Source: a virus
Virus record (IMG/VR): IMGVR_UViG_3300046534_000405
Location: 1 to 35,925 of that record
Length of the DNA stretch: 35,925 bases
Reading direction: 5' to 3' (one strand)
Below the pieces are notes generated by a model. It was given only the letters and a program-made list of their open reading frames with translations. It ran no database searches and was not told the origin of the DNA. A program made the position numbers and the translations under genes. Shown in pieces: positions 12,709 to 29,040 of this stretch. How positions within the stretch are numbered: position 1 is the first letter of the stretch; each line of letters opens with the position of its first letter.

Positions 12709-13203
12709 ATGTTTAACCAAGAAGAAATCGAAGAAATAAAAGAGTTCCTTGTGAACGTAGAAGAAGATACTAAGATTTATTTAGGATGTGATAGCGTGAA
12801 GTATAAGAAAGGTGGTACTTGGTACGCCCGTTATACGACCGTGATCATTGTCCATTTGGGCGGCCGTCACGGTTCGCGAGTGTTTGGTTATACCGAGTCT
12901 GAACGCGATTATGACCCAAACAAAACCAAGCCTCGAATGCGTTTGATGAATGAATCTTACAAGGTTGTTGGTTTGTATATGGAACTTGCAGAAGAGTTGG
13001 AAGACTTTGAGTGTGAAATTCACCTTGACATAAACTCCAACCCAGAACACAACTCAAATCTTGTTATTAAAGAGGCGGTTGGTTATGTTATGGGAATGAC
13101 AGGAATAGACGCAAAGTCTAAGCCAGAAGCATTCGCGGCGAGTCATTGTGCGGACTGGATGGTAAAACATAAAGGTCACCAAAACGTAACTTGGAAGCAC
13201 TAA
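12709..13203 (+). CDS. RNase H-like nuclease of the YkuK/DUF458 family
   Basis: A 164-aa protein with the DUF458 (YkuK) pattern of an RNase H-like fold. A first strand carries an Asp (KIYLGCDSVKYKKGG, Asp28), followed by TVIIVHLGGRHGSRVFGY, an acidic position in RLMNESYKVVGLYMELAEEL (Glu82), a second-strand Asp in EIHLDINSNPEHNSN (Asp107), and a late Asp in AASHCADWMV (Asp149). These four acidic residues fit a two-metal nuclease site, although activity has not been shown for this family as far as I know. It is inserted between gp47 and gp46 with only short gaps, with GAGGTAG before its start, which suggests a job in DNA-end or RNA-DNA hybrid processing alongside them. Confidence 0.75.
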   Translation: MFNQEEIEEIKEFLVNVEEDTKIYLGCDSVKYKKGGTWYARYTTVIIVHLGGRHGSRVFGYTESERDYDPNKTKPRMRLMNESYKVVGLYMELAEELEDFECEIHLDINSNPEHNSNLVIKEAVGYVMGMTGIDAKSKPEAFAASHCADWMVKHKGHQNVTWKH

Positions 13204-14919
13204 ATGTTAATCTTTCGAAAGCTAAGATACAAGAACTTTCTCAGTACGGGCGATTCCTTCACTGAGATTGCTCTTGATAGATCACAAACAACATTAGTCG
13301 TAGGTAAGAACGGCGCAGGCAAGTCGACCATGACTGATGCCTTGTCGTTCGCCTTGTTTGGTAAACCTCATAGAAACATCACTAAACCGCAGCTAATCAA
13401 TTCTATAAACGGAAAAGGTTGTGTGGCAGAAGTGGAGTTTGATATTGGAAAGCAGGAATTCCGAATTGTCCGTGGTATAAAGCCTGTACGATTCGAGATA
13501 TATCAAAATGGAACTATGATCAATCAGGAATCTAATGCTCGTGATTATCAGAAGTTCCTCGAACTGAATATAATTAAGATGAACCACAAATCGTTTCATC
13601 AAATAGTCGTATTGGGTTCTAGTTCATTCATTCCTTTCATGCAGCTTCCCGCCAATCACAGACGTGAAGTTATAGAAGACTTATTGGATATTAATATCTT
13701 TTCCAAGATGAATACGATAATGAAAGATCGTCTTGCCAAGAATAAGGAACATCTAAAAGACGTTATATACCAGAATGATTTAATCAAAGAAAAGATTGAT
13801 TTACAACAGAGCCATATAACAAAGGTTACTAAACTTAATCAGTTTGCACTTGATGACATTAACACCGAAATTGAAGATATTGAATCTGAAATCGATACAT
13901 ATAAGTCTGAAAATGAAGTATTGACATTGGTCATTGATAAGCATTTTATGGATACTCAGGAAAGATTATCAAAGGAAAATGATATCAATATCAAACTTGT
14001 ACAATATGCCGCACAGTTTAAACAACAGATGAATGTCATTGTAAAGGATGCAAAGTTCTATACGGATAATGACGATTGCCCATCTTGTGGTGTTGAAATC
14101 GATGAACATACCAAAAATCATAATATTAAATCTTGCGAAAATAAAGCGGCCGAATTGTCGGAAGCGATGAGTTCTCTCGATATCAAGAGTAATGATCTAC
14201 AAAAGACAATCGAAAAGTTGCAACTCGAAATGAGTGATATGAAGGATGACCGAGTAACTATTCGTACCAACAACTTGACTATTTTGAACTTAGAGAAAAA
14301 AGTCAAGTTGAAACGCGGAAGTGCTGCAAAAATGAATAGTCAAGATTCAGACGTGAGTGCGGCTACAACAGCGCTTAACGATTTAATATCGGTCAGAGAA
14401 ACTATTATAGAATCTAAGTCTACTTTGAGTGAAGAACAGACCTATTTCAATGCTTGTAATGAAATGCTTAAAGATACAGGAATCAAAACAAAGATCATAA
14501 AGGAATATCTTCCTGTCATGAATACAATAGTAAACAAGTACTTGCAGATTCTAGACTTCTTTGTTGATTTCAATATTGATGAAAACTTCAACGAGACAAT
14601 TCGATCTCGATATCGTGATGCATTTAGTTATAGTTCATTCAGTGAAGGTGAGAAGATGAAGATTGATATTTCCCTACTGTTTGCGTGGCGTCAAATCGCC
14701 AAACTAAAGAACAGTGCAGCCACTAATCTCTTAATTCTCGATGAAACCTTCGATTCCAGCCTCGACCAAGATTCTGTCGATAATCTCATGAAGATCATGG
14801 ACACTCTGGGAACTGACACGAATACCTTCGTTATCAGCCATAAAGGTGATATGTTGATGGACAAATTCCGATCAAAGATCGAATTCACGAAATCCCGTAA
14901 CTTCTCGGTCATAAAGTAA
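13204..14919 (+). CDS. 46: Recombination nuclease ATPase subunit gp46 (SbcC/Rad50-like)
   Basis: The SMC-like ATPase partner of gp47. At 571 aa it is close to T4 gp46 (560). Walker A is VVGKNGAGKST (Lys40) and a QIVVLGSSSFIPFMQLP Q-loop region follows at about residues 138-155. Long coiled-coil arms run from about 170 to 450, interrupted by a zinc-hook motif CPSCG (Cys292, Cys295). The C-terminal lobe has the signature FSEGEKMKIDISLLFAWRQI and Walker B/D-loop LLILDETFDSSLD. The start follows the previous stop directly (TAAATG) with GGAAG upstream. It is followed by a terminator. Confidence 0.95.
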   Translation: MLIFRKLRYKNFLSTGDSFTEIALDRSQTTLVVGKNGAGKSTMTDALSFALFGKPHRNITKPQLINSINGKGCVAEVEFDIGKQEFRIVRGIKPVRFEIYQNGTMINQESNARDYQKFLELNIIKMNHKSFHQIVVLGSSSFIPFMQLPANHRREVIEDLLDINIFSKMNTIMKDRLAKNKEHLKDVIYQNDLIKEKIDLQQSHITKVTKLNQFALDDINTEIEDIESEIDTYKSENEVLTLVIDKHFMDTQERLSKENDINIKLVQYAAQFKQQMNVIVKDAKFYTDNDDCPSCGVEIDEHTKNHNIKSCENKAAELSEAMSSLDIKSNDLQKTIEKLQLEMSDMKDDRVTIRTNNLTILNLEKKVKLKRGSAAKMNSQDSDVSAATTALNDLISVRETIIESKSTLSEEQTYFNACNEMLKDTGIKTKIIKEYLPVMNTIVNKYLQILDFFVDFNIDENFNETIRSRYRDAFSYSSFSEGEKMKIDISLLFAWRQIAKLKNSAATNLLILDETFDSSLDQDSVDNLMKIMDTLGTDTNTFVISHKGDMLMDKFRSKIEFTKSRNFSVIK

Positions 14920-14962: not shown

Positions 14963-14967
14963 GCGCT

Positions 14968-14985
14968 GAGTACGCTGCATGCTTT
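14968..14985 (+). repeat. Direct repeat shared with the dyad at 17613
   Basis: GAGTACGCTGCATGCTTT at 14968-14985 is identical to 17613-17630, on the far side of the vWA gene. At 17613 it is the left arm of a large perfect dyad. Here the matching right arm is degraded: the following 15 to 40 bases keep a GGGT-CGTA-ACCC hairpin and a GAAATCA segment like the other copy, but not the closing arm. This looks like a decayed copy of the same element. Confidence 0.75.
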
Positions 14986-15092: not shown

Positions 15093-15121
15093 TTGACAAA
15101 TGGGTAATAACCATGTAAAAT
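15093..15121 (+). promoter_or_regulatory. Sigma70-type promoter P1 of the vWA gene
   Basis: TTGACA (15093-15098), 17 bases and TAAAAT (15116-15121). The upstream bases GAAATCAGTTG are repeated before the promoter at 17839, and the downstream bases ATGAATTGGAAAAC are repeated after the promoter at 17719. Confidence 0.8.
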
Positions 15122-15273: not shown

Positions 15274-17604
15274 ATGAATAAATTACTTGTTAACCTCCTT
15301 GCCAAAGAAAACATCACTGTTCAGGTCGGTAATTATAAGACTGCATGGTTTGCCCCTGCTGCTCGCATATTGGGACTTCCTTTGTGGTCTTCATCATCTA
15401 AACATCTCAATGATATGTTGGTCGGGCATGAAGTCGGGCATGCATTGTTTACCCCAGTTCAAGGGTGGCATGATTGTAAGACTGATATCCCAGGCATTCC
15501 TCGCTCTTTCGTTAATATCATTGAAGATATTCGTATCGAAAAACTAGTTATCAGAATGTACCCAGGTCTTGTCGTTTGTTTCAAAAGAGGTTATATGGAA
15601 TTGATCGATCAAGACTTCTTCGGTATTGCAGGAAAGGACGTTAACGGCCTTCACTTTCTTGATCGATTGAACATCAAGGCGAAAGTTCGTGATTTAATGG
15701 AAGTCGAATTTACGGAAAAAGAACAACCCTATTTAAAGGCGGCAATGGCCGTTGAAACTTGGGAAGATACGATTGCGGTTTGTTTGATGCTTAAAGAATA
15801 TGCCGACGAATTGAAAAATCAACCAAAACCCGAAACACCTGAAGTTCCTCAAATTCCTGAATCGGATGATTCGGAAGCTGAAGAGCCCATGATCGACCCA
15901 AGTAGCCCTGATGATTCTGGTTCAGATGATTCAGATGATGATTCTGATGATTCAGATGATGATTCTGGTACCTCGACCGATGGTGATTCAGATGAAGATT
16001 CAGATGATTCCGATGAAGATGGTTCGTCAACCGATGATGATTCAGATGATGATTCAGATGATGATTCAGATGATGATTCAGATGCCGGTGGTTCGTCGGA
16101 TGATGTAGACGATGAAGACGATGATGAAGACTTCGGTGATCTTCCCGCTGACGGTATGTCAACTCCAGGCAATGATGTTACCGAACACGCCGAGGACCCA
16201 ATCACAGATGATAACTTCCGCAAAAATGAAGAAGATGGAAATCTTCTTGATAAAGGCGAAGGTAATACTTCGAAGTCGACGTATTACATTAATGCCGTCT
16301 CTAAAGAAACTACCAAGGAAGTGGTTGTTGGTTATAAAGAAGTCATTCAAATTAGAGATACCAATCGTGATGTGACAATCGCCGCTGGTGGTGTTATGAA
16401 GACGTTAAAGACGTGGCAACAAACTGAAGTTGATGAATTCCACAAGACAACCAAAAGTACGGTATCTTTGATGGTTAAGGAGTTCGAACTTAAGAAACAT
16501 GCTTTTCAATTCACTCGCGCAACCACTGCTACAAGGGGTGTGCTTGATGTAAACAAAATTCACCAATACAAATATGATGATAATATCTTTAAAGCGGTTA
16601 CATCACTTGCAGACGCCAAGAGCCATGGAATGGTTATGTTTATTGACTTCTCTGGTTCAATGGGTGGAATACTTAAAAATGTTCTGAAACAGACATTGAT
16701 AATGACTGCATTCTGTAAACGAGTGGGAATACCCTTTGATGTTTATACTTTCTGCTCTAAAGCTCACAAGGCCCGAGCCGATGAAGTCAAAGCTACAATG
16801 AAGGATTTTGATGTTGACTGTTCGTATTCTGTCGTTCGCCAAATACTTAGTTCTAAGATGACTAAAGTTGAATATAATCGTTGTGTTGATGATCTGTTAA
16901 TCATGGCGATTGATGGAATGTATGGCGCTACAACTCGCTATAATTATACAAGGGACGATTGTGAATTAGGTGGTACTCCTTTGGTTGAAACTGCAATGAT
17001 GGCTCGACACATACTTCGAGAATTCAAAACCAAAAATGCAGTTCAGAAAGTTACTGCGATATTCCTAACTGATGGTGATGGTATTTCGCCACACCATTAC
17101 ATGGACCGATCAATCAATCCAAGTCTTCGTGCTGATGCGACTTATGCTGGAACTTACCATAAGGCAAGCGACTGCAGGATTCAAATCAATATGGATGGAA
17201 AACATTTAAATTACGCCAACTCACGAGACATGGCTTTTAAATGTCAGTCCGATGTTCTGAATTATCTAAGAGCTGAATTCAATGTTGTGGGTTATTTCAT
17301 TGCAGACCGTCGTTCAACTTATAACTATAAATTGGAAGGTATCAGACTTAAAAATGATGTCAATATGAAAAAGACGCCATTGAACAAAAGCTATAGTAAA
17401 ATGAAATATGTTTCGATTGACGGAGTAGAAGGTTATGACCGTTTGTTCCTGATTGATGGCGGTGCACTTGATACGACTGCTACGGAATTCGAAGTTAAAG
17501 ACAAGGCTTCAATTGGTGAGGTTCGTACGGCATTTAAGAAACATGCCGGTGGTAAGAAAAGTAAACGACTTTTCGCCGCGGAATTCATTGAAATGGTGGC
17601 ATAA
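15274..17604 (+). CDS. CobT-like vWA protein with N-terminal HExxH metallopeptidase-like domain
   Basis: A 776-aa three-part protein. Residues 1-180: a gluzincin-like domain with GHEVGHALFTP (His52-Glu53-x-x-His56, the HExxH zinc motif) and a downstream FVNIIEDIRIEK with Glu84, the arrangement of a third metal ligand. Residues about 190-300: an extremely acidic linker of Asp-Ser repeats. Residues about 310-776: a globular C-terminal half whose vWA domain has a MIDAS motif MFIDFSGSM (Asp458, Ser460, Ser462). CobT of cobalt chelatase has an acidic linker plus vWA and works with the AAA+ protein CobS. The next gene here is CobS/MoxR-like, so the two should form a remodelling machine. No cobalamin gene is present, so a chelatase role is not supported. 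Peptidase activity is inferred from the motif. Confidence 0.8.
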   Translation: MNKLLVNLLAKENITVQVGNYKTAWFAPAARILGLPLWSSSSKHLNDMLVGHEVGHALFTPVQGWHDCKTDIPGIPRSFVNIIEDIRIEKLVIRMYPGLVVCFKRGYMELIDQDFFGIAGKDVNGLHFLDRLNIKAKVRDLMEVEFTEKEQPYLKAAMAVETWEDTIAVCLMLKEYADELKNQPKPETPEVPQIPESDDSEAEEPMIDPSSPDDSGSDDSDDDSDDSDDDSGTSTDGDSDEDSDDSDEDGSSTDDDSDDDSDDDSDDDSDAGGSSDDVDDEDDDEDFGDLPADGMSTPGNDVTEHAEDPITDDNFRKNEEDGNLLDKGEGNTSKSTYYINAVSKETTKEVVVGYKEVIQIRDTNRDVTIAAGGVMKTLKTWQQTEVDEFHKTTKSTVSLMVKEFELKKHAFQFTRATTATRGVLDVNKIHQYKYDDNIFKAVTSLADAKSHGMVMFIDFSGSMGGILKNVLKQTLIMTAFCKRVGIPFDVYTFCSKAHKARADEVKATMKDFDVDCSYSVVRQILSSKMTKVEYNRCVDDLLIMAIDGMYGATTRYNYTRDDCELGGTPLVETAMMARHILREFKTKNAVQKVTAIFLTDGDGISPHHYMDRSINPSLRADATYAGTYHKASDCRIQINMDGKHLNYANSRDMAFKCQSDVLNYLRAEFNVVGYFIADRRSTYNYKLEGIRLKNDVNMKKTPLNKSYSKMKYVSIDGVEGYDRLFLIDGGALDTTATEFEVKDKASIGEVRTAFKKHAGGKKSKRLFAAEFIEMVA
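15910..16092 (+). repeat. Asp-Ser low-complexity repeat inside the vWA gene
   Basis: Short repeats built from GATTCAGATGAT units (9 to 18 bases, partly perfect) encode runs of DSDDDSDD within the acidic linker of the vWA protein. Open frames on the other strand in this stretch are artefacts of the repeat. Such repeats change length readily. Confidence 0.85.
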
Positions 17605-17609
17605 CGTGA

Positions 17610-17674
17610 ACCGAGTACGCTGCATGCTTTCCAGGCTTGAAGGGGTTAACCCTGCTGGAATCAGCGTACTCGGT
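17610..17674 (+). repeat. Large 13-bp dyad with nested hairpins
   Basis: Starting six bases after the vWA stop, ACCGAGTACGCTG (17610-17622) is perfectly complementary to CAGCGTACTCGGT (17662-17674). Inside it TTCCAG (17629-17634) pairs with CTGGAA (17655-17660), and inside that GGG-TTAA-CCC (17643-17652). As RNA it would be one long three-tier stem; as DNA it could extrude a cruciform. No T-run follows, so it is not an ordinary terminator. Its left arm is repeated at 14968. Confidence 0.85.
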
Positions 17675-17700
17675 GTCGCGTATTGAATGATTTGTGTCGC
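17674..17700 (+). repeat. TGTCGC pair, 21-bp period (site 3)
   Basis: TGTCGC at 17674-17679 and 17695-17700, starts 21 bp apart, overlapping the last base of the large dyad and lying just before the -35 box at 17719. The spacer closely matches that of the 15180 site. Confidence 0.7.
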
Positions 17701-17718
17701 GATATGATAAGAAAAAGG

Positions 17719-17747
17719 TTGACAAATAACCCAAAACCCTGTAAAAT
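17719..17747 (+). promoter_or_regulatory. Sigma70-type promoter P1 of the AAA+ gene
   Basis: TTGACA (17719-17724), 17 bases and TAAAAT (17742-17747). It is followed by ATGAATTGGAAAAC (17754), the same leader start as after the vWA promoter at 15093. Confidence 0.8.
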
Positions 17748-17788
17748 GGCATTATGAATTGGAAAACGTTACAGCTAATACCCCTCCG

Positions 17789-17811
17789 CGATATAACTAA
17801 AAGTTATATCG
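17789..17811 (+). repeat. Perfect 10-bp inverted repeat between two promoters
   Basis: CGATATAACT (17789-17798), AAA, AGTTATATCG (17802-17811), with a further direct copy GATATAACT at 17811-17819. It lies between promoters P1 and P2 of the AAA+ gene. No T-run follows, so it is better explained as an operator or leader hairpin than as a terminator. Confidence 0.75.
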
Positions 17812-17838
17812 ATATAACTCGGAAGTTGAAATCAGTTG

Positions 17839-17867
17839 TTGACATTTGCCCGCGCGCCATGTATAAT
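17839..17867 (+). promoter_or_regulatory. Sigma70-type promoter P2 of the AAA+ gene
   Basis: TTGACA (17839-17844), 17 bases and TATAAT (17862-17867), preceded by GAAATCAGTTG as at 15083. Predicted start near 17874, which excludes the open frame's TTG at 17879 as a useful start and supports the ATG at 17906. Confidence 0.85.
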
Positions 17868-17905
17868 GGTCGTATAAATTGAAAAACATTGAGAAAACCT
17901 ATATT

Positions 17906-19207
17906 ATGAAAAACTTATATCAGAACGTGACCAACCTATTTGACGCCCGTATGGCTGCAATGGTCAAACCTACAATCAAAATCAACGAAGCTAACGTCAA
18001 TAAGATCGTTGCTATCGTCAGTGCTACCATGGCACAATATCCATCGGTCACCGAATTTAAGGCTGACCAAGTGTCAGATGTTGCACGAGACATGGGTTAT
18101 TCACGTAACTTCGGTCGACAGATTGCGGTGGCTCAACCTAAATTAGAAAATGGTCTTTATGATCTTTCTGATGTGGTCGCTACATTTGCGGGTGAGACAG
18201 TCCAGATCGCCGCTCCTGCTGTTCCTGTCGTTCAAAACGTTGTACCTATGATCGCACCTGTTGCTGTCGCGCCTGTTGCTGTCGCGCCTGTTGCTGTCGC
18301 GCCTGTTGCAACTCCGGCTGCAACAGTTCAATCAACAGTCTCAAAACAGACTTTCATTCCTAAAGTTCTCGATACCTACGTAGCATGGGGTCATTTCGCC
18401 GACGTGGTTAAAATCGTCAAATCCGAAATGTTCTACCCAATGTTTATTTGTGGTTTATCAGGAAACGGAAAAACCTTGATGGTCGATCAAGTCTGTGCAA
18501 AACTGAAACGCTCGATGATTCGTGTTCAAATCTCACCAGAAACAGATGAAGATGATCTGCTTGGTGGATTCCGACTTGTCGGTGGTGAAACGGTTTTCCA
18601 GAAAGGGCCTGTTATTCAGGCAATGGAAAACGGTGAATTGTTGCTTCTTGATGAAATCGACCGCGGCACTAACAAGATTATGTGTCTTCAGGGCGTACTT
18701 GAAGGTAAGCCGATTCTTCTTAAAAAGACAGGTGAAGTGATCACTCCTGCTCCGGGCTTCAATGTGATTGCAACTGCAAACACTAAGGGTAAAGGTTCAG
18801 ATGACGGTCGTTTTGCCGCTGCTACCATTATCGATGAGGCTTTCCTTGAACGCTTCACTATCACAATGGAACAACCTTATCCTTCAGCCTCGGTTGAAAA
18901 GAAGATTGTTATGAAACATATGGAATTGTACTCAGGTACAACCGACAGCGAATTCGCTACTCATTTGACCAATTGGTCTAAAACTATTCGCGATACTTTC
19001 GCGATGGATGCAATCGATGAGATTGTTTCTACCCGACGTTTGTGCCACATTGTACAAACCCATGCAATCTTCAATGATAAAATGAAGGCGGTCCAATTAT
19101 GTGTCAACCGATTCGATGAAGAAACCAAAGAAGCTTTCATTGATCTTTACACCAAGGTTGATGTTGAAGCCGCAATTGCTGAAGAGTCCAAAGAAGTTGC
19201 AATATAG
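17906..19207 (+). CDS. MoxR/CobS-type AAA+ ATPase
   Basis: A 433-aa AAA+ protein from the ATG at 17906. N-terminal residues 1-100 include a small domain (VTEFKADQVSDVARDMGYSRNFGRQIAVAQ) resembling a DNA/protein-binding helix set. A Val-Ala-Pro linker follows at about 105-145, then the ATPase: Walker A ICGLSGNGKTLM (Lys189), Walker B LLLLDEIDRG, sensor 1 NVIATANTKG, and arginine-finger region AFLERFTI. Proteins of this type in cyanophages and other T4-like phages are often labelled CobS. It pairs with the vWA protein upstream, as in MoxR-vWA and CobS-CobT systems, where the ATPase drives remodelling of a substrate held by the vWA partner. The substrate here is unknown. Confidence 0.85.
   Translation: MKNLYQNVTNLFDARMAAMVKPTIKINEANVNKIVAIVSATMAQYPSVTEFKADQVSDVARDMGYSRNFGRQIAVAQPKLENGLYDLSDVVATFAGETVQIAAPAVPVVQNVVPMIAPVAVAPVAVAPVAVAPVATPAATVQSTVSKQTFIPKVLDTYVAWGHFADVVKIVKSEMFYPMFICGLSGNGKTLMVDQVCAKLKRSMIRVQISPETDEDDLLGGFRLVGGETVFQKGPVIQAMENGELLLLDEIDRGTNKIMCLQGVLEGKPILLKKTGEVITPAPGFNVIATANTKGKGSDDGRFAAATIIDEAFLERFTITMEQPYPSASVEKKIVMKHMELYSGTTDSEFATHLTNWSKTIRDTFAMDAIDEIVSTRRLCHIVQTHAIFNDKMKAVQLCVNRFDEETKEAFIDLYTKVDVEAAIAEESKEVAI
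18257..18301 (+). repeat. 15-bp tandem repeat encoding a Val-Ala-Pro linker
   Basis: Three perfect copies of CCTGTTGCTGTCGCG, with partial copies either side, encode PVAVA repeats that join the N-terminal domain to the ATPase core. Repeat number could vary without breaking the frame. Confidence 0.9.
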
Positions 19208-19845: not shown

Positions 19846-20529
19846 ATGAAACTAAGTAACGACACAACCGCAATTTTAAAGAATCTTGCGTCCATTAACT
19901 CAAATATCGTTCTCGATATCGGGTCGACAATTCGGACTATTTCCGAAGGTAAGAATATTCTTGCCAAAGCAACCATCAGTGAGGCATTCGACCAATCATT
20001 TGGTATCTATGATCTCAATGAATTCCTTGGTGTGAATGGAATGTTCACCGACCCCGATATGACTATTAGTGATGATGCGAATTATGCCACTATAAAAAGC
20101 GGCCGTCAATCAGTTAAATACTTCTTCTCAGATGCGTCTTTCCTGACCAAACCTGAAAAAGATGTGAACATGCCCAAAATCGATCTCGAGTTTGCAATTT
20201 CAGATGAAAACCTTAATACACTCCGTAAGGCATCTGCAACTCTTGGCTCAACCGATATGACAATCTCTGGTGATGCCGATGGTGCAATTACCGTAGTTAT
20301 TGGCGAAACTAAGAACAACACCGCCAACTCTTTTTCTGTCGATATCACAGAAGACACAACTACGCGTCCTGATTGTGCCTTCTCTTTCGTGTTCAATATC
20401 GGAAACTTCAAGTTTATGTCTGGTGACTACGTGGTATCTATTTCCTCGAAGTTGATCTCACATTTTGTGAATGATTCTGGCGTAATTGAATACTGGGTTG
20501 CTCTCGAAAAAGATTCATCTTTCGGTTAA
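19846..20529 (+). CDS. 45: Sliding clamp gp45
   Basis: The trimeric DNA polymerase processivity clamp, also the mobile co-activator of late transcription with gp55. At 227 aa it matches T4 gp45 (228). Typical features: N-terminal LSNDTTAILKNLASINSNIVLDIGSTIRTISEGKNILAKATI, the central FGIYDLNEFLGVNGMF strand, a KYFFSDASFLTKP element and the C-terminal SGDYVVSISSKLISHFVNDSGVIEYWVALEKDSSF. It has its own promoter and a leader of the form GAGAAAAACTCAT before the ATG, similar to leaders at 17906 and 30051. It is followed by dsbA and gp44. Confidence 0.95.
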   Translation: MKLSNDTTAILKNLASINSNIVLDIGSTIRTISEGKNILAKATISEAFDQSFGIYDLNEFLGVNGMFTDPDMTISDDANYATIKSGRQSVKYFFSDASFLTKPEKDVNMPKIDLEFAISDENLNTLRKASATLGSTDMTISGDADGAITVVIGETKNNTANSFSVDITEDTTTRPDCAFSFVFNIGNFKFMSGDYVVSISSKLISHFVNDSGVIEYWVALEKDSSFG

Positions 20530-26564: not shown

Positions 26565-26951
26565 ATGAGTAATTTTGAAGAAGTAGCATATTTCATGAAA
26601 ACCTTCGGCCAAGAGGTCGTTACAAGTCCAACATTCCCTTCTAAGGAAATCGCGCAGCTGCGCGTTGAATTAATTGAAGAAGAACTCCAAGAACTTAAAG
26701 ATGCAATCGCCGATGGTGACATGGTTGAGATTGCAGATGCATTGACAGACATTCTATATGTCACCTATGGTGCAGGGCATTCCTACGGCCTTCCTTTGGA
26801 TAAATGCTTCATGGAAGTGCAGCGATCAAATATGTCCAAGGCAGATGAAAATGGAAATCCTATCTATCGTGAAGATGGCAAGATCATGAAAGGAGTTAAT
26901 TACTCCGAACCTGATCTTCTACCTTTACTTATTGGAAAAGATATTTCATGA
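26565..26951 (+). CDS. MazG-like nucleotide pyrophosphohydrolase
   Basis: A 128-aa all-alpha NTP-PPase. The metal-binding pattern EExxE...ExxD is present: LIEEELQELKDAIADGDMVEIADALTDILYVTYG. The sequence continues with HSYGLPLDKCFMEVQRSNMSKADENGNPIYREDGKIMKG, typical of the dUTPase-like/MazG-related branch rather than the double-domain bacterial MazG. Such enzymes hydrolyse NTPs or dNTPs to monophosphates. In phages they may clean the nucleotide pool or alter signalling, but the substrate is not readable from sequence. GAGG precedes the start. It overlaps the glycosyltransferase by ATGA. Confidence 0.85.
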   Translation: MSNFEEVAYFMKTFGQEVVTSPTFPSKEIAQLRVELIEEELQELKDAIADGDMVEIADALTDILYVTYGAGHSYGLPLDKCFMEVQRSNMSKADENGNPIYREDGKIMKGVNYSEPDLLPLLIGKDIS

Positions 26952-27805
26952 ATCCGCAATTTCCGGTTTACATCATATCGAAGGGTCGCTGGGAGTCACG
27001 ACAAACCGCGGATGCACTTGAGGCAATGAATATGCCTTATCGCATTGTAGTCGAGCCGCAGGAATATGCTGAATATGCCAAGGTTATAAGTCCAGAAAAG
27101 ATATTGCAATTGCCATTTAGTAATCTTGGTCAAGGCAGTATTCCTGCTCGCAACTGGGTTTGGGACCATTCAATGAGTGAAGGGCATAAACGCCATTGGA
27201 TTCTAGACGACAATATTAAATGCTTCTATCGTTTCAATAATAACAAACGGGTACGAGTAACGTCTGGGACTATATTCAAGGCAGCAGAAGACTTCGTTGA
27301 ACGATACGAAAATGTTAAAATCGCGGGCATGCAATACTTCTATTTCATCCCAAAACGATCTACAACTCGCCCTGCATATCTTGCAAACACTCGAGTGTAC
27401 AGTTGCTTATTAATTGAAAATGATACGAAGCACCGTTGGAGAGGCAAATACAATGAAGACACAGACTTAAGTCTTCGCGTACTCAAGGACGGTGATTGTA
27501 CTATTCTGTTTAATGCTTTCCTTTGTGGTAAGTCAGGAACATTAAGTATGAAAGGTGGAAACACCGAGGAAGTCTACGGTGCCGATCAAGACAACAGATA
27601 CAAGTTCGCGAAGTCATTATATGATCAACACCCAGATGTAGTTGAGATTGTTAAGAAATACGACCGATGGCATCACCATGTTGATTATCGACCATTTGAA
27701 AATAATCGATTGATCAAAAAAGAAGGTCTAAATATTAAGAAGGGTGTCGATAACTACGGCATGGAATTAACTCAAATTGAGGCAAGTGAAGACGATGGCG
27801 ATTAA
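26948..27805 (+). CDS. TAGT-type glycosyltransferase (GT-A fold)
   Basis: A 285-aa GT-A glycosyltransferase resembling the TET-associated glycosyltransferase (TAGT) group. Features: N-terminal VYIISKGRWESRQTADAL, YRIVVEPQEYAEY, a donor-binding GQGSIPARNWVWD, and the metal/nucleotide-sugar motif RHWILDDNIKCFYR (Asp87-Asp88). A later NEDTDLSLRVLKDG segment supplies an acidic catalytic candidate. TAGT proteins have been proposed to glycosylate modified bases (hydroxymethylcytosine-like) in phage DNA. The nucleotide-sugar SDR two genes downstream could supply the donor. A base-hydroxylating enzyme is not seen in this window, so DNA as the acceptor is inference; a virion glycan is an alternative. 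Confidence 0.7.
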   Translation: MNPQFPVYIISKGRWESRQTADALEAMNMPYRIVVEPQEYAEYAKVISPEKILQLPFSNLGQGSIPARNWVWDHSMSEGHKRHWILDDNIKCFYRFNNNKRVRVTSGTIFKAAEDFVERYENVKIAGMQYFYFIPKRSTTRPAYLANTRVYSCLLIENDTKHRWRGKYNEDTDLSLRVLKDGDCTILFNAFLCGKSGTLSMKGGNTEEVYGADQDNRYKFAKSLYDQHPDVVEIVKKYDRWHHHVDYRPFENNRLIKKEGLNIKKGVDNYGMELTQIEASEDDGD

Positions 27806-28103
27806 ACGACCAGTAGAAAATAGCATATTTGTTGCGACAGGACAGGACGAAGTATCAACTCCATTAGATTGGGACGGCATGCCTGAATACGTCCATGAAG
27901 CAGGCGGTAAACGTGATGAAGCAGGCGTTCATCGAATCGTCCGAGTACGATTCCGCAATGAAGAAGATTATCAATTGTTTGCGAAGTTGATGGACCAACC
28001 AATGACACATAAAACTAAGTCCATTTGGTACCCACAACTTGATCGTTTCGAAGATACGTTGCTACGATACGTTGATACAGACGAGGGAACAGAAAATGTC
28101 TAG
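27795..28103 (+). CDS. Small unknown protein in the sugar cassette
   Basis: A 102-aa protein from the ATG at 27795, overlapping the glycosyltransferase end by 11 bases and the next gene start by 8; a longer frame from a TTG at 27777 is less likely. The second half reads [35 protein letters not shown]. The K-T-K-S-I-W-Y-P motif is something I recall from short phage domains of uncertain function, sometimes next to DNA-modification genes, but I cannot assign a role. Translational coupling at both ends ties it to the glycosyltransferase and nucleotide-sugar enzyme. Confidence 0.6.
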
Positions 28104-29040
28104 AGTATTAGTAACAGGTGGTGCGGGTTTTCTTGGTTCGCACTTATGTCAACGATTATTGGATAATGGCCATGAAGTCATTTGTCTTGATAACTTCTCG
28201 ACAGGTCGACTAGTAAACATTTCAAACATGATAGACTATAAAAGATTCAAATTGGTAGAACATGACGTAATCGAGCCATTCATGCCATACGGGTTGCAAG
28301 TCGATCAGATTTTTAATTTAGCATGCCCTGCATCTCCGCCTGCTTATCAGTTGAATGCAATCGATACAATGAAGACTAATGTCTATGGCATGGTTAATAT
28401 GTTAGACATTGCAAGATTAAATGGCGCAACTATATTGCAGGCATCGACAAGCGAAGTTTACGGCGACCCTCTTGTGTCTCCTCAACCCGAAACCTATTGG
28501 GGTAACGTGAACCCAAATGGCATTCGTAGTTGTTATGACGAAGGTAAACGAGCCGCGGAATCTCTTTGTTTCGATTATAAGCGCCAACATGGAGTTGATG
28601 TTAAGGTTGCAAGAATATTCAACACATACGGCCCACAAATGGACCCCGCTGATGGTCGAGTCGTTTCGAACTTTATCATGCAAGCTCTACAAGGTAAAGA
28701 TATTACAATTTATGGTGATGGTTCACAGACTAGATCATTTCAATATGTCACCGATCTTATCGATGGGTTTATGGCTTTAATGTATAAAACCGACCTGTCG
28801 CTTGATGCACCGGTCAACCTTGGCAATCCTGTCGAGTTTACTATATTGGAACTTGCCCAGAAAGTAATTGATATGACAGATTCAGATTCAGATTTGGTAT
28901 TCCATGATTTGCCTGGTGATGACCCAAAACAGAGATGCCCTGATACTCGCCGAGCAGAAGTTCTTCTGCCATGGAATCCAAGAACTCCATTATCTGTTGG
29001 CCTTGTAAAAACTATCGAGTACTTCGAGCAATATGTCTAA
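28096..29040 (+). CDS. UDP-glucuronate decarboxylase-like SDR (nucleotide-sugar enzyme)
   Basis: A 314-aa extended SDR from the ATG at 28096 (GAGGGA upstream). The NAD site is [15 protein letters not shown]. Catalytic residues are in [10 protein letters not shown] (Thr/Ser) and [11 protein letters not shown] (Tyr-x-x-x-Lys). Stretches [35 protein letters not shown] and [23 protein letters not shown] match UDP-xylose synthase (UDP-glucuronate decarboxylase) very closely. The likely reaction is UDP-glucuronate to UDP-xylose, though dTDP-glucose dehydratase or epimerase activity in related SDRs cannot be excluded. Such genes are frequent in marine T4-like phages. It may supply the sugar used by the upstream glycosyltransferase. 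Confidence 0.88.

What the first reader, a model, noticed from the sequence alone, without database searches (positions are those of the whole stretch)
15274..19207. Phage-encoded vWA-metallopeptidase and MoxR/CobS ATPase pair
The 776-aa protein joins an N-terminal HExxH site (His52, Glu53, His56, with Glu84 downstream) to an Asp-Ser linker and a MIDAS-bearing vWA domain, and is followed by a MoxR/CobS-type AAA+ ATPase with its own promoters. The usual CobS/CobT label implies cobalt chelation, but no cobalamin gene is nearby and the zincin-like domain is not part of classical CobT as I know it. A two-part protein-remodelling or proteolysis machine aimed at a host or phage complex is a better working idea. 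What is seen: the motifs and adjacency. What is inferred: joint function.
Basis: partly seen in the sequence, partly recalled or inferred. Interest (0 to 1): 0.72.

Follow-up and report, generated by a model that had tools for sequence, protein, structure and literature searches.

The report
Phage protease–vWA and MoxR ATPase pair
Many marine T4-like phages carry, inside their DNA-replication gene block, a two-gene ATP-driven machine whose partner protein has a strictly conserved zinc-protease site; databases label it vitamin-B12 "CobS" and "peptidase", but the evidence points to protein processing or remodelling rather than B12 synthesis.

Summary
Observation confirmed. ORF 15274-17604 (776 aa) has an N-terminal HExxH domain, an acidic Asp/Ser linker and a MIDAS-bearing vWA domain. 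A MoxR/CobS-type AAA+ ORF follows at 17906-19207. HExGH plus NxxEDxRIE are invariant in 18/18 diverse relatives, and the N-domain is the best-conserved part. Its predicted structure (pLDDT 89.9) matches gluzincins best. The vWA part matches NorD bound to NorQ best (Z 16.4).

The pair is not peculiar to this phage. 463 phage records encode the first protein, mostly marine T4-like phages, where it lies next to the ATPase and typically between gp47/gp46 and gp45/gp44. Active-site relatives, also paired with an AAA+, sit on conjugative plasmids beside ssb/bet/exo.

Iyer et al. 2021 (PMC7824862) already described a phage MoxR + metallopeptidase-vWA pair, so the kind is known; they proposed virion assembly. 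A rival literature claim is cobalt chelation (PMC8651126). Family cut-offs, a tree and genomes without CobN argue against it. Perfect sigma-70 promoters and replication-cluster synteny favour early, DNA-linked use over virion maturation.

Proteolysis, zinc binding, complex formation and substrate remain untested.

The parts
15274..15828 (+). N-terminal gluzincin-like metallopeptidase domain (residues 1-185; HEVGH 52-56, NIIEDIRIE 81-89)
   Evidence: Invariant motifs in 18/18 relatives; AlphaFold2 pLDDT 89.9; top structural matches are zincins; the most conserved part of the protein (75% vs 49% identity to the L168 orthologue)
15829..16173 (+). Acidic Asp/Ser-rich disordered linker (residues 186-300)
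   Evidence: 49% D+E, no K/R; acidic character kept, sequence not kept, in relatives
16174..17604 (+). Helical pre-domain, finger-like beta-hairpin and vWA domain with MIDAS D458xSGS-T568-D600
   Evidence: Invariant D458/S460/S462/T568/D600; best structural match NorD vWA bound to NorQ, Z 16.4, 260 residues; PHROG 459 over the whole protein, E 3.5e-159
17906..19207 (+). MoxR/CobS-type AAA+ ATPase (433 aa from ATG 17906; TTG 17879 is an unlikely start)
   Evidence: AAA_5 E 2.1e-19; phrog_249 E 6.2e-108; PDB relatives Midasin, CobS, NorQ, CbbQ
15093..15121 (+). Sigma-70-like promoter upstream of the peptidase-vWA gene (11/12), part of a repeated 50-nt element
17719..17747 (+). Sigma-70-like promoter upstream of the ATPase gene (11/12)
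17839..17867 (+). Perfect sigma-70-like promoter (TTGACA-17-TATAAT) upstream of the ATPase gene

Best explanation
The two genes encode an early-expressed ATP-driven protein-processing machine used during phage DNA replication and recombination. The MoxR-type ATPase forms a hexamer whose pore receives a finger of the vWA protein. MIDAS and linker capture a protein target, ATP hydrolysis twists or stretches it, and the N-terminal gluzincin domain, tethered by the acidic linker, cuts it. Shown here: conserved motifs, zincin-like and NorD-like predicted folds, near-obligate pairing, placement between gp46 and gp45, sigma-70-type promoters, strong conservation of the N-domain. Inferred: zinc binding, proteolysis, hexamer and complex formation (by analogy with NorQD, PMC13036017), timing, and the substrate class (replication- or DNA-bound host or phage protein).
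For: HExGH and NxxEDxRIE invariant in 18/18. N-domain model pLDDT 89.9; the highest VIA rows are dominated by zincins (ZMPSTE24 Z 7.2, BepA 6.4, ArdC 6.4, abylysin 6.2, IrrE 5.7). The vWA part matches NorD in the NorQ complex best. Pair together in 60 of 62 loci with the ATPase; the two exceptions are contig ends. gp46 upstream in 37 and gp45 downstream in 41 of 60 pairs, both in 29, with many contigs ending too early to tell; the same order in Syn9, HTVC008M and P-SSM2. Perfect sigma-70 promoters precede the ATPase, gp45, clamp loader and DNA polymerase genes, while T4-late TATAAATA boxes precede head genes. Relatives with HExxH on conjugative plasmids sit with an AAA+ gene and ssb-bet-exo.
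Against: No biochemical data. Active-site geometry was not measured. Structural Z of 5-7 is moderate, and Foldseek alone gave no PDB match below E 0.03. Synteny and promoters are indirect; Syn9 timing data (ismej.2015.210) were not held. No member was shown to bind a replication protein.
Confidence: 0.5

Rival explanations
1. Virion assembly and maturation chaperone-protease: the pair remodels and cuts structural proteins during head or tail assembly, as proposed by Iyer et al. 2021 for group 2.2 jumbo phages.
For: The same architecture was described there, with an archaeal-virus precedent for MoxR-vWA in tail assembly (PMC7824862). The S-SM1 virion proteome lists 41 proteins, but a catalytic assembly factor need not be packaged (PMC3037559).
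Against: The pair lies in the replication/recombination block, not among head and tail genes. Sigma-70-type rather than T4-late promoters precede it. This phage already encodes a gp21-type head protease. The paper names only two cyanophage-core proteins (T4-GC15, 190) as virion proteins, and cobS is not one of them. Plasmid relatives have no virion.
Confidence: 0.2
2. Cobaltochelatase subunits: phage CobS/CobT work with host CobN to raise cobalamin synthesis (Liu et al. 2021; the usual cyanophage 'cobS' auxiliary-gene reading).
For: Distant homology to CobS (TIGR01650 E 3.6e-18) and, via mobile-element relatives, to CobT in both domains. The control genome Synechococcus elongatus has CobN but no CobS or CobT match, so a phage could supply them.
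Against: CobS model score 65.8 bits against a cut-off of 558.55. The window CobT-like protein hits neither PF06213 nor PF11775. The phage ATPases form their own clade apart from CobS. Two genomes carrying the pair lack CobN, Nonlabens and Desulfallas. Pelagibacter phages have the pair although Pelagibacter is thought not to make cobalamin (indirect; own knowledge). Invariant HExxH has no known role in chelation and is lost in true CobT.
Confidence: 0.1
3. Metal-dependent but non-proteolytic chaperone: the N-domain binds metal or substrate through its zincin fold, and the MoxR/vWA motor inserts a cofactor or opens a complex without cutting.
For: NorQD, CbbQO and RavA-ViaA remodel without cutting (PMC13036017, PMC9976466). 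The related CobT has lost HExxH yet keeps the domain, so the fold has a non-catalytic role in at least one branch.
Against: All catalytic residues, including the general base Glu53, are invariant over divergent phages, which a purely structural role would not require.
Confidence: 0.15

Closest known systems
Phage MoxR AAA+ / metallopeptidase-vWA pair (Iyer et al. 2021, PMC7824862; e.g. ASV44729.1-ASV44728.2)
   Same: vWA protein fused to an N-terminal metallopeptidase domain next to a MoxR AAA+ gene, in tailed phages.
   Different: Reported there for group 2.2 jumbo phages and tied to virion assembly; here it is a T4-like phage with the genes in the replication block behind sigma-70-type promoters.
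phrog_459 'peptidase' / phrog_249 'porphyrin biosynthesis, CobS' of marine T4-like phages (Syn9 gp150/gp153, P-SSM2, HTVC008M)
   Same: Full-length homologues, same gene pair, same gp47-gp46-[pair]-gp45-gp44 setting.
   Different: Only about 30-35% identical in the first protein; long Asp/Ser linker; Ala-Pro-Val repeat in the ATPase N-terminus.
NorQ/NorD and CbbQ/CbbO MoxR-vWA chaperones
   Same: MoxR AAA+ plus vWA with MIDAS, flexible linker and N-domain; predicted vWA structure closest to NorD in the NorQ complex.
   Different: NorD and CbbO are not described as metallopeptidases; NorQD inserts iron into nitric oxide reductase.
Aerobic cobaltochelatase CobS/CobT
   Same: AAA+ plus vWA pair, acidic linker, homologous N-domain by a transitive profile link.
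   Different: CobT has lost HExxH, phage ATPases lie outside the CobS clade, no CobN found here.
AAA+ / DUF3150 / HExxH-vWA module on conjugative plasmids (R16a IncC, pTHAF38_a, p1160-VIM)
   Same: HExxH + NxxEDxRIE-like N-domain (hhalign probability 99.4%), acidic linker, vWA, AAA+ partner.
   Different: Carries an extra DUF3150 gene, is linked to ssb-bet-exo in two of three plasmids read, and the ATPase lies outside the phage clade.

Membership tests
Phage MoxR / metallopeptidase-vWA pair (Iyer 2021) | vWA protein with N-terminal metallopeptidase domain, adjacent to a MoxR AAA+ gene | tested here: met
Phage MoxR / metallopeptidase-vWA pair (Iyer 2021) | Proposed role in virion assembly | tested here: inconclusive
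   Only indirect: promoters and synteny point away; no experiment
Gluzincin metallopeptidase | HExxH plus downstream Glu ligand, conserved | tested here: met
   H52, E53, H56, E84 invariant in 18/18
Gluzincin metallopeptidase | Zincin fold | tested here: met
   Model pLDDT 89.9; top VIA rows are M48, ArdC, abylysin/selecase and IrrE, Z 5-7.2; moderate scores
Gluzincin metallopeptidase | Clustered zinc ligands, zinc binding, peptidase activity | not testable with these tools
   No coordinates and no biochemistry
MoxR AAA+ / vWA pair | AAA+ of the MoxR/chelatase clade with Walker A/B and sensor 1 | tested here: met
   groups with CobS and mobile AAA+ apart from a MoxR outgroup
MoxR AAA+ / vWA pair | vWA with intact MIDAS (DxSxS-T-D) | tested here: met
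   D458, S460, S462, T568, D600 invariant
MoxR AAA+ / vWA pair | Helix-2 insert and physical complex | not tested
   Insert not examined; complex needs experiment
Cobaltochelatase CobS (TIGR01650) | Score above curated cut-off | tested here: not met
   65.8 bits against 558.55
Cobaltochelatase CobS (TIGR01650) | Falls inside the CobS clade | tested here: not met
   Phage clade 95/98 and CobS clade 100/99 are separate; CobS sampled from one bacterial class only
Cobaltochelatase CobT (PF06213/PF11775) | Score above curated cut-off in either domain | tested here: not met
   No CobT or CobT_C hit for the window protein
Cobaltochelatase | CobN or other cobalamin genes nearby | tested here: inconclusive
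   The neighbours and other large ORFs scanned are DNA-replication, head or unassigned; several ORFs were not scanned, and the window is only part of the genome

The most novel reading that the evidence does not exclude
The widely reported cyanophage vitamin-B12 gene 'cobS' and its 'peptidase' partner are an energy-driven, DNA-replication-linked protease shared by phages and conjugative plasmids, acting for example to clear or mature proteins on replicating DNA. The cobalt chelatase subunit CobT is a derived branch whose protease site has died.
Probability: 0.25. Interest if true: 0.75.

Novelty: new member of a known kind. Interest (0 to 1): 0.5.

Why it matters
cobS is counted as a core auxiliary metabolic gene of marine T4-like cyanophages and is even used as a community marker (PMC3037559, PMC9983427). 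If the pair is a protease machine rather than a chelatase, a widely repeated claim that phages boost host vitamin B12 needs revision, and a conserved core function of some of the most abundant viruses in the sea becomes testable. The link to active-site relatives on conjugative plasmids, and to a degenerate site in CobT, gives an evolutionary frame that a few experiments could settle.

Tried and rejected
Pfam and NCBIfam do not recognise the peptidase-vWA protein above cut-off. Sequence search of PDB with the N-domain profile gave only a chance match. Foldseek alone was weak (ArdC E 0.03); VIA-align was needed. Direct profile comparison of the phage N-domain with CobT was not significant (probability 1%), and pooling phage with mobile sequences gave only 22%; the link rests on mobile element against CobT (89-90%, shuffled controls under 1%) and phage against mobile (99%). 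Solved CobT structures exist (9uka, 21vu) but did not appear among the fold matches; the fold library ends in April 2026, so nothing follows from that. Defence-system libraries gave only a weak IetA match to the ATPase. Rfam and tRNA scans of the window were empty. Syn9 transcriptome paper not held. One apparent HExxH in a CobT locus (L104) lies in an N-terminal extension of an over-long open frame and was rejected. The antisense ORFs over the linker are products of its GAT/TCA repeats.
Full report
What is there. The window is part of a T4-like phage (gp21 protease, scaffold, gp23, late sigma factor, gp47, gp46, gp45, clamp loader, RegA, DNA polymerase, helicase). Between gp46 (13204-14919) and gp45 (19846-20529) lie the two genes of the finding. 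The first (15274-17604) encodes 776 aa with His52, Glu53, His56, Glu84, Asp85, an acidic linker (residues 186-300: 49% D+E, no K/R) and MIDAS D458-x-S-G-S, T568, D600. The second encodes an AAA+ ATPase with Walker A, Walker B and sensor 1. Its likely start is ATG 17906, because TTG 17879 lies about 12 bases after the -10 box of a perfect sigma-70-type promoter.

Is it more than chance? Full-length relatives were taken from viral contigs, most by way of the neighbouring ATPase. Over 18 diverse sequences (36-56% identical in this domain) HExGH and N-x-x-E-D-x-R-I-E are invariant, and the N-domain (mean column identity 50%) is far better conserved than the vWA part (33%). Against a nearer orthologue (L168) the N-domain is 75% identical, the linker 31% and the vWA part 49% (synonymous sites are saturated, so dN/dS is only indicative).

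Fold. AlphaFold2 on the 18-row alignment gave pLDDT 89.9 for residues 1-185. The HExxH helix is 43-59 and the E84/E89 helix 77-95. VIA-align's best matches are ZMPSTE24 (Z 7.2), BepA, ArdC, abylysin/selecase and IrrE, nearly all zincins. Z of 5-7 is moderate, but the list is homogeneous. Residues 300-776 (pLDDT 74.6) match NorD's vWA domain bound to NorQ best (9qh6, Z 16.4, 260 residues). In NorQD a vWA finger enters the AAA+ pore and a linker is twisted (PMC13036017). The phage protein has a predicted strand-helix-strand insertion just before the MIDAS that could be such a finger (inference).

Distribution. 463 phage records encode the first protein and 581 an ATPase relative; the counts for Synechococcus, Prochlorococcus, 'Cyanophage' and Pelagibacter phages are identical in both searches. 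In the fetched set, 60 of 62 loci with the ATPase also have the first protein (the two exceptions are contig ends). Order is T-S in 53, S-T in 6, divergent in 1. gp46 precedes 37 and gp45 follows 41 of the 60 pairs, both in 29; many contigs end too soon to tell. Syn9, HTVC008M and P-SSM2 have the same order.

Relatives outside phages. Proteins with the same HExxH + NIIEDIRIE N-domain, acidic linker and vWA occur in bacterial genomes (L069-L083) and on over a thousand plasmids by tblastn, most predicted conjugative (that count includes weak, partial vWA matches). On an IncC plasmid and a Microbulbifer plasmid they lie with an AAA+ gene, DUF3150, ssb, bet/recT and exo. An IncP-type Pseudomonas plasmid has AAA+, DUF3150 and vWA.

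Relation to CobT. Profile comparison gives phage against mobile N-domain 99.4% (E 1.4e-21, 176 columns) and mobile against classical CobT N-domain 90.5% (E 1.3e-6, 191 columns), with reversed and shuffled controls below 1%. Pfam's CobT model hits two mobile proteins above cut-off. In CobT the HExxH stretch reads like G-D-S-M-A-L-R and EDxRIE reads EQARVE; none of the 30 CobT loci has HExxH there. The direct phage-CobT comparison is not significant, so this link is transitive. One genome (G001, Pseudovibrio) has both a genuine CobST and a separate mobile pair.

Why not a chelatase. The ATPase scores 65.8 bits against CobS's cut-off of 558.55. A maximum-likelihood tree puts 25 phage ATPases in one clade (95/98) apart from CobS (100/99), with the mobile ATPases nearer CobS (long branches and Alphaproteobacteria-only CobS are caveats). 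Nonlabens and Desulfallas genomes with the pair lack CobN; the Nonlabens copy may itself be phage. Pelagibacter phages carry it. The contrary argument (Liu et al., PMC8651126) is that the phage supplies CobST to a host that has only CobN; S. elongatus does have CobN without CobST.

When. Perfect sigma-70-type promoters precede the late sigma gene, the ATPase, gp45, the clamp loader, the DNA polymerase and further early-type genes. T4-late boxes TATAAATA precede head genes, and none precedes this pair. TATAAATA occurs 6 times against 2.5 expected, so single boxes are weak evidence. Early use is inferred.

Prior art and verdict. Iyer et al. 2021 (PMC7824862) already described a MoxR AAA+ with a metallopeptidase-vWA partner in group 2.2 jumbo phages and suggested virion assembly. 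This window is a new member of that kind. Function remains inference.

Noticed in passing
window 17610-17675 and 14967-14985: A strong RNA hairpin (z -4.1) lies between the two genes; its 18-nt GAGTACGCTGCATGCTTT also occurs after gp46, and in related phages (L168-L171) between gp46 and the peptidase gene. Function unknown.
   Followed up: partly
window 10638, 17839, 19778, 20819, 23942, 26509, 29990, 31081, 33909 versus 3677, 5034, 7588, 8122, 10147: Perfect sigma-70-type promoters before early and replication-type genes, T4-late boxes TATAAATA before head-type genes: a clean promoter split along the window.
   Followed up: partly
window 12709-13203: 164-aa ORF between gp47 and gp46 with an RNaseH_like domain (PF04308, E 2.7e-20; phrog_11311 of unknown function); also present in L168, L170 and L171.
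   Followed up: no
window 26948-29040: A glucosyl-HMC-glucosyltransferase-like gene and a nucleotide-sugar epimerase-like gene next to a primase: possible DNA base or sugar modification.
   Followed up: no
window 18252-18324: 15-nt tandem repeat encoding a Val-Ala-Pro-Val-Ala linker in the N-terminal part of the ATPase.
   Followed up: no
L084, L085, L086: On conjugative plasmids the AAA+ and HExxH-vWA genes are accompanied by a DUF3150 gene, a possible third component not seen among the phage window genes that were scanned.
   Followed up: partly
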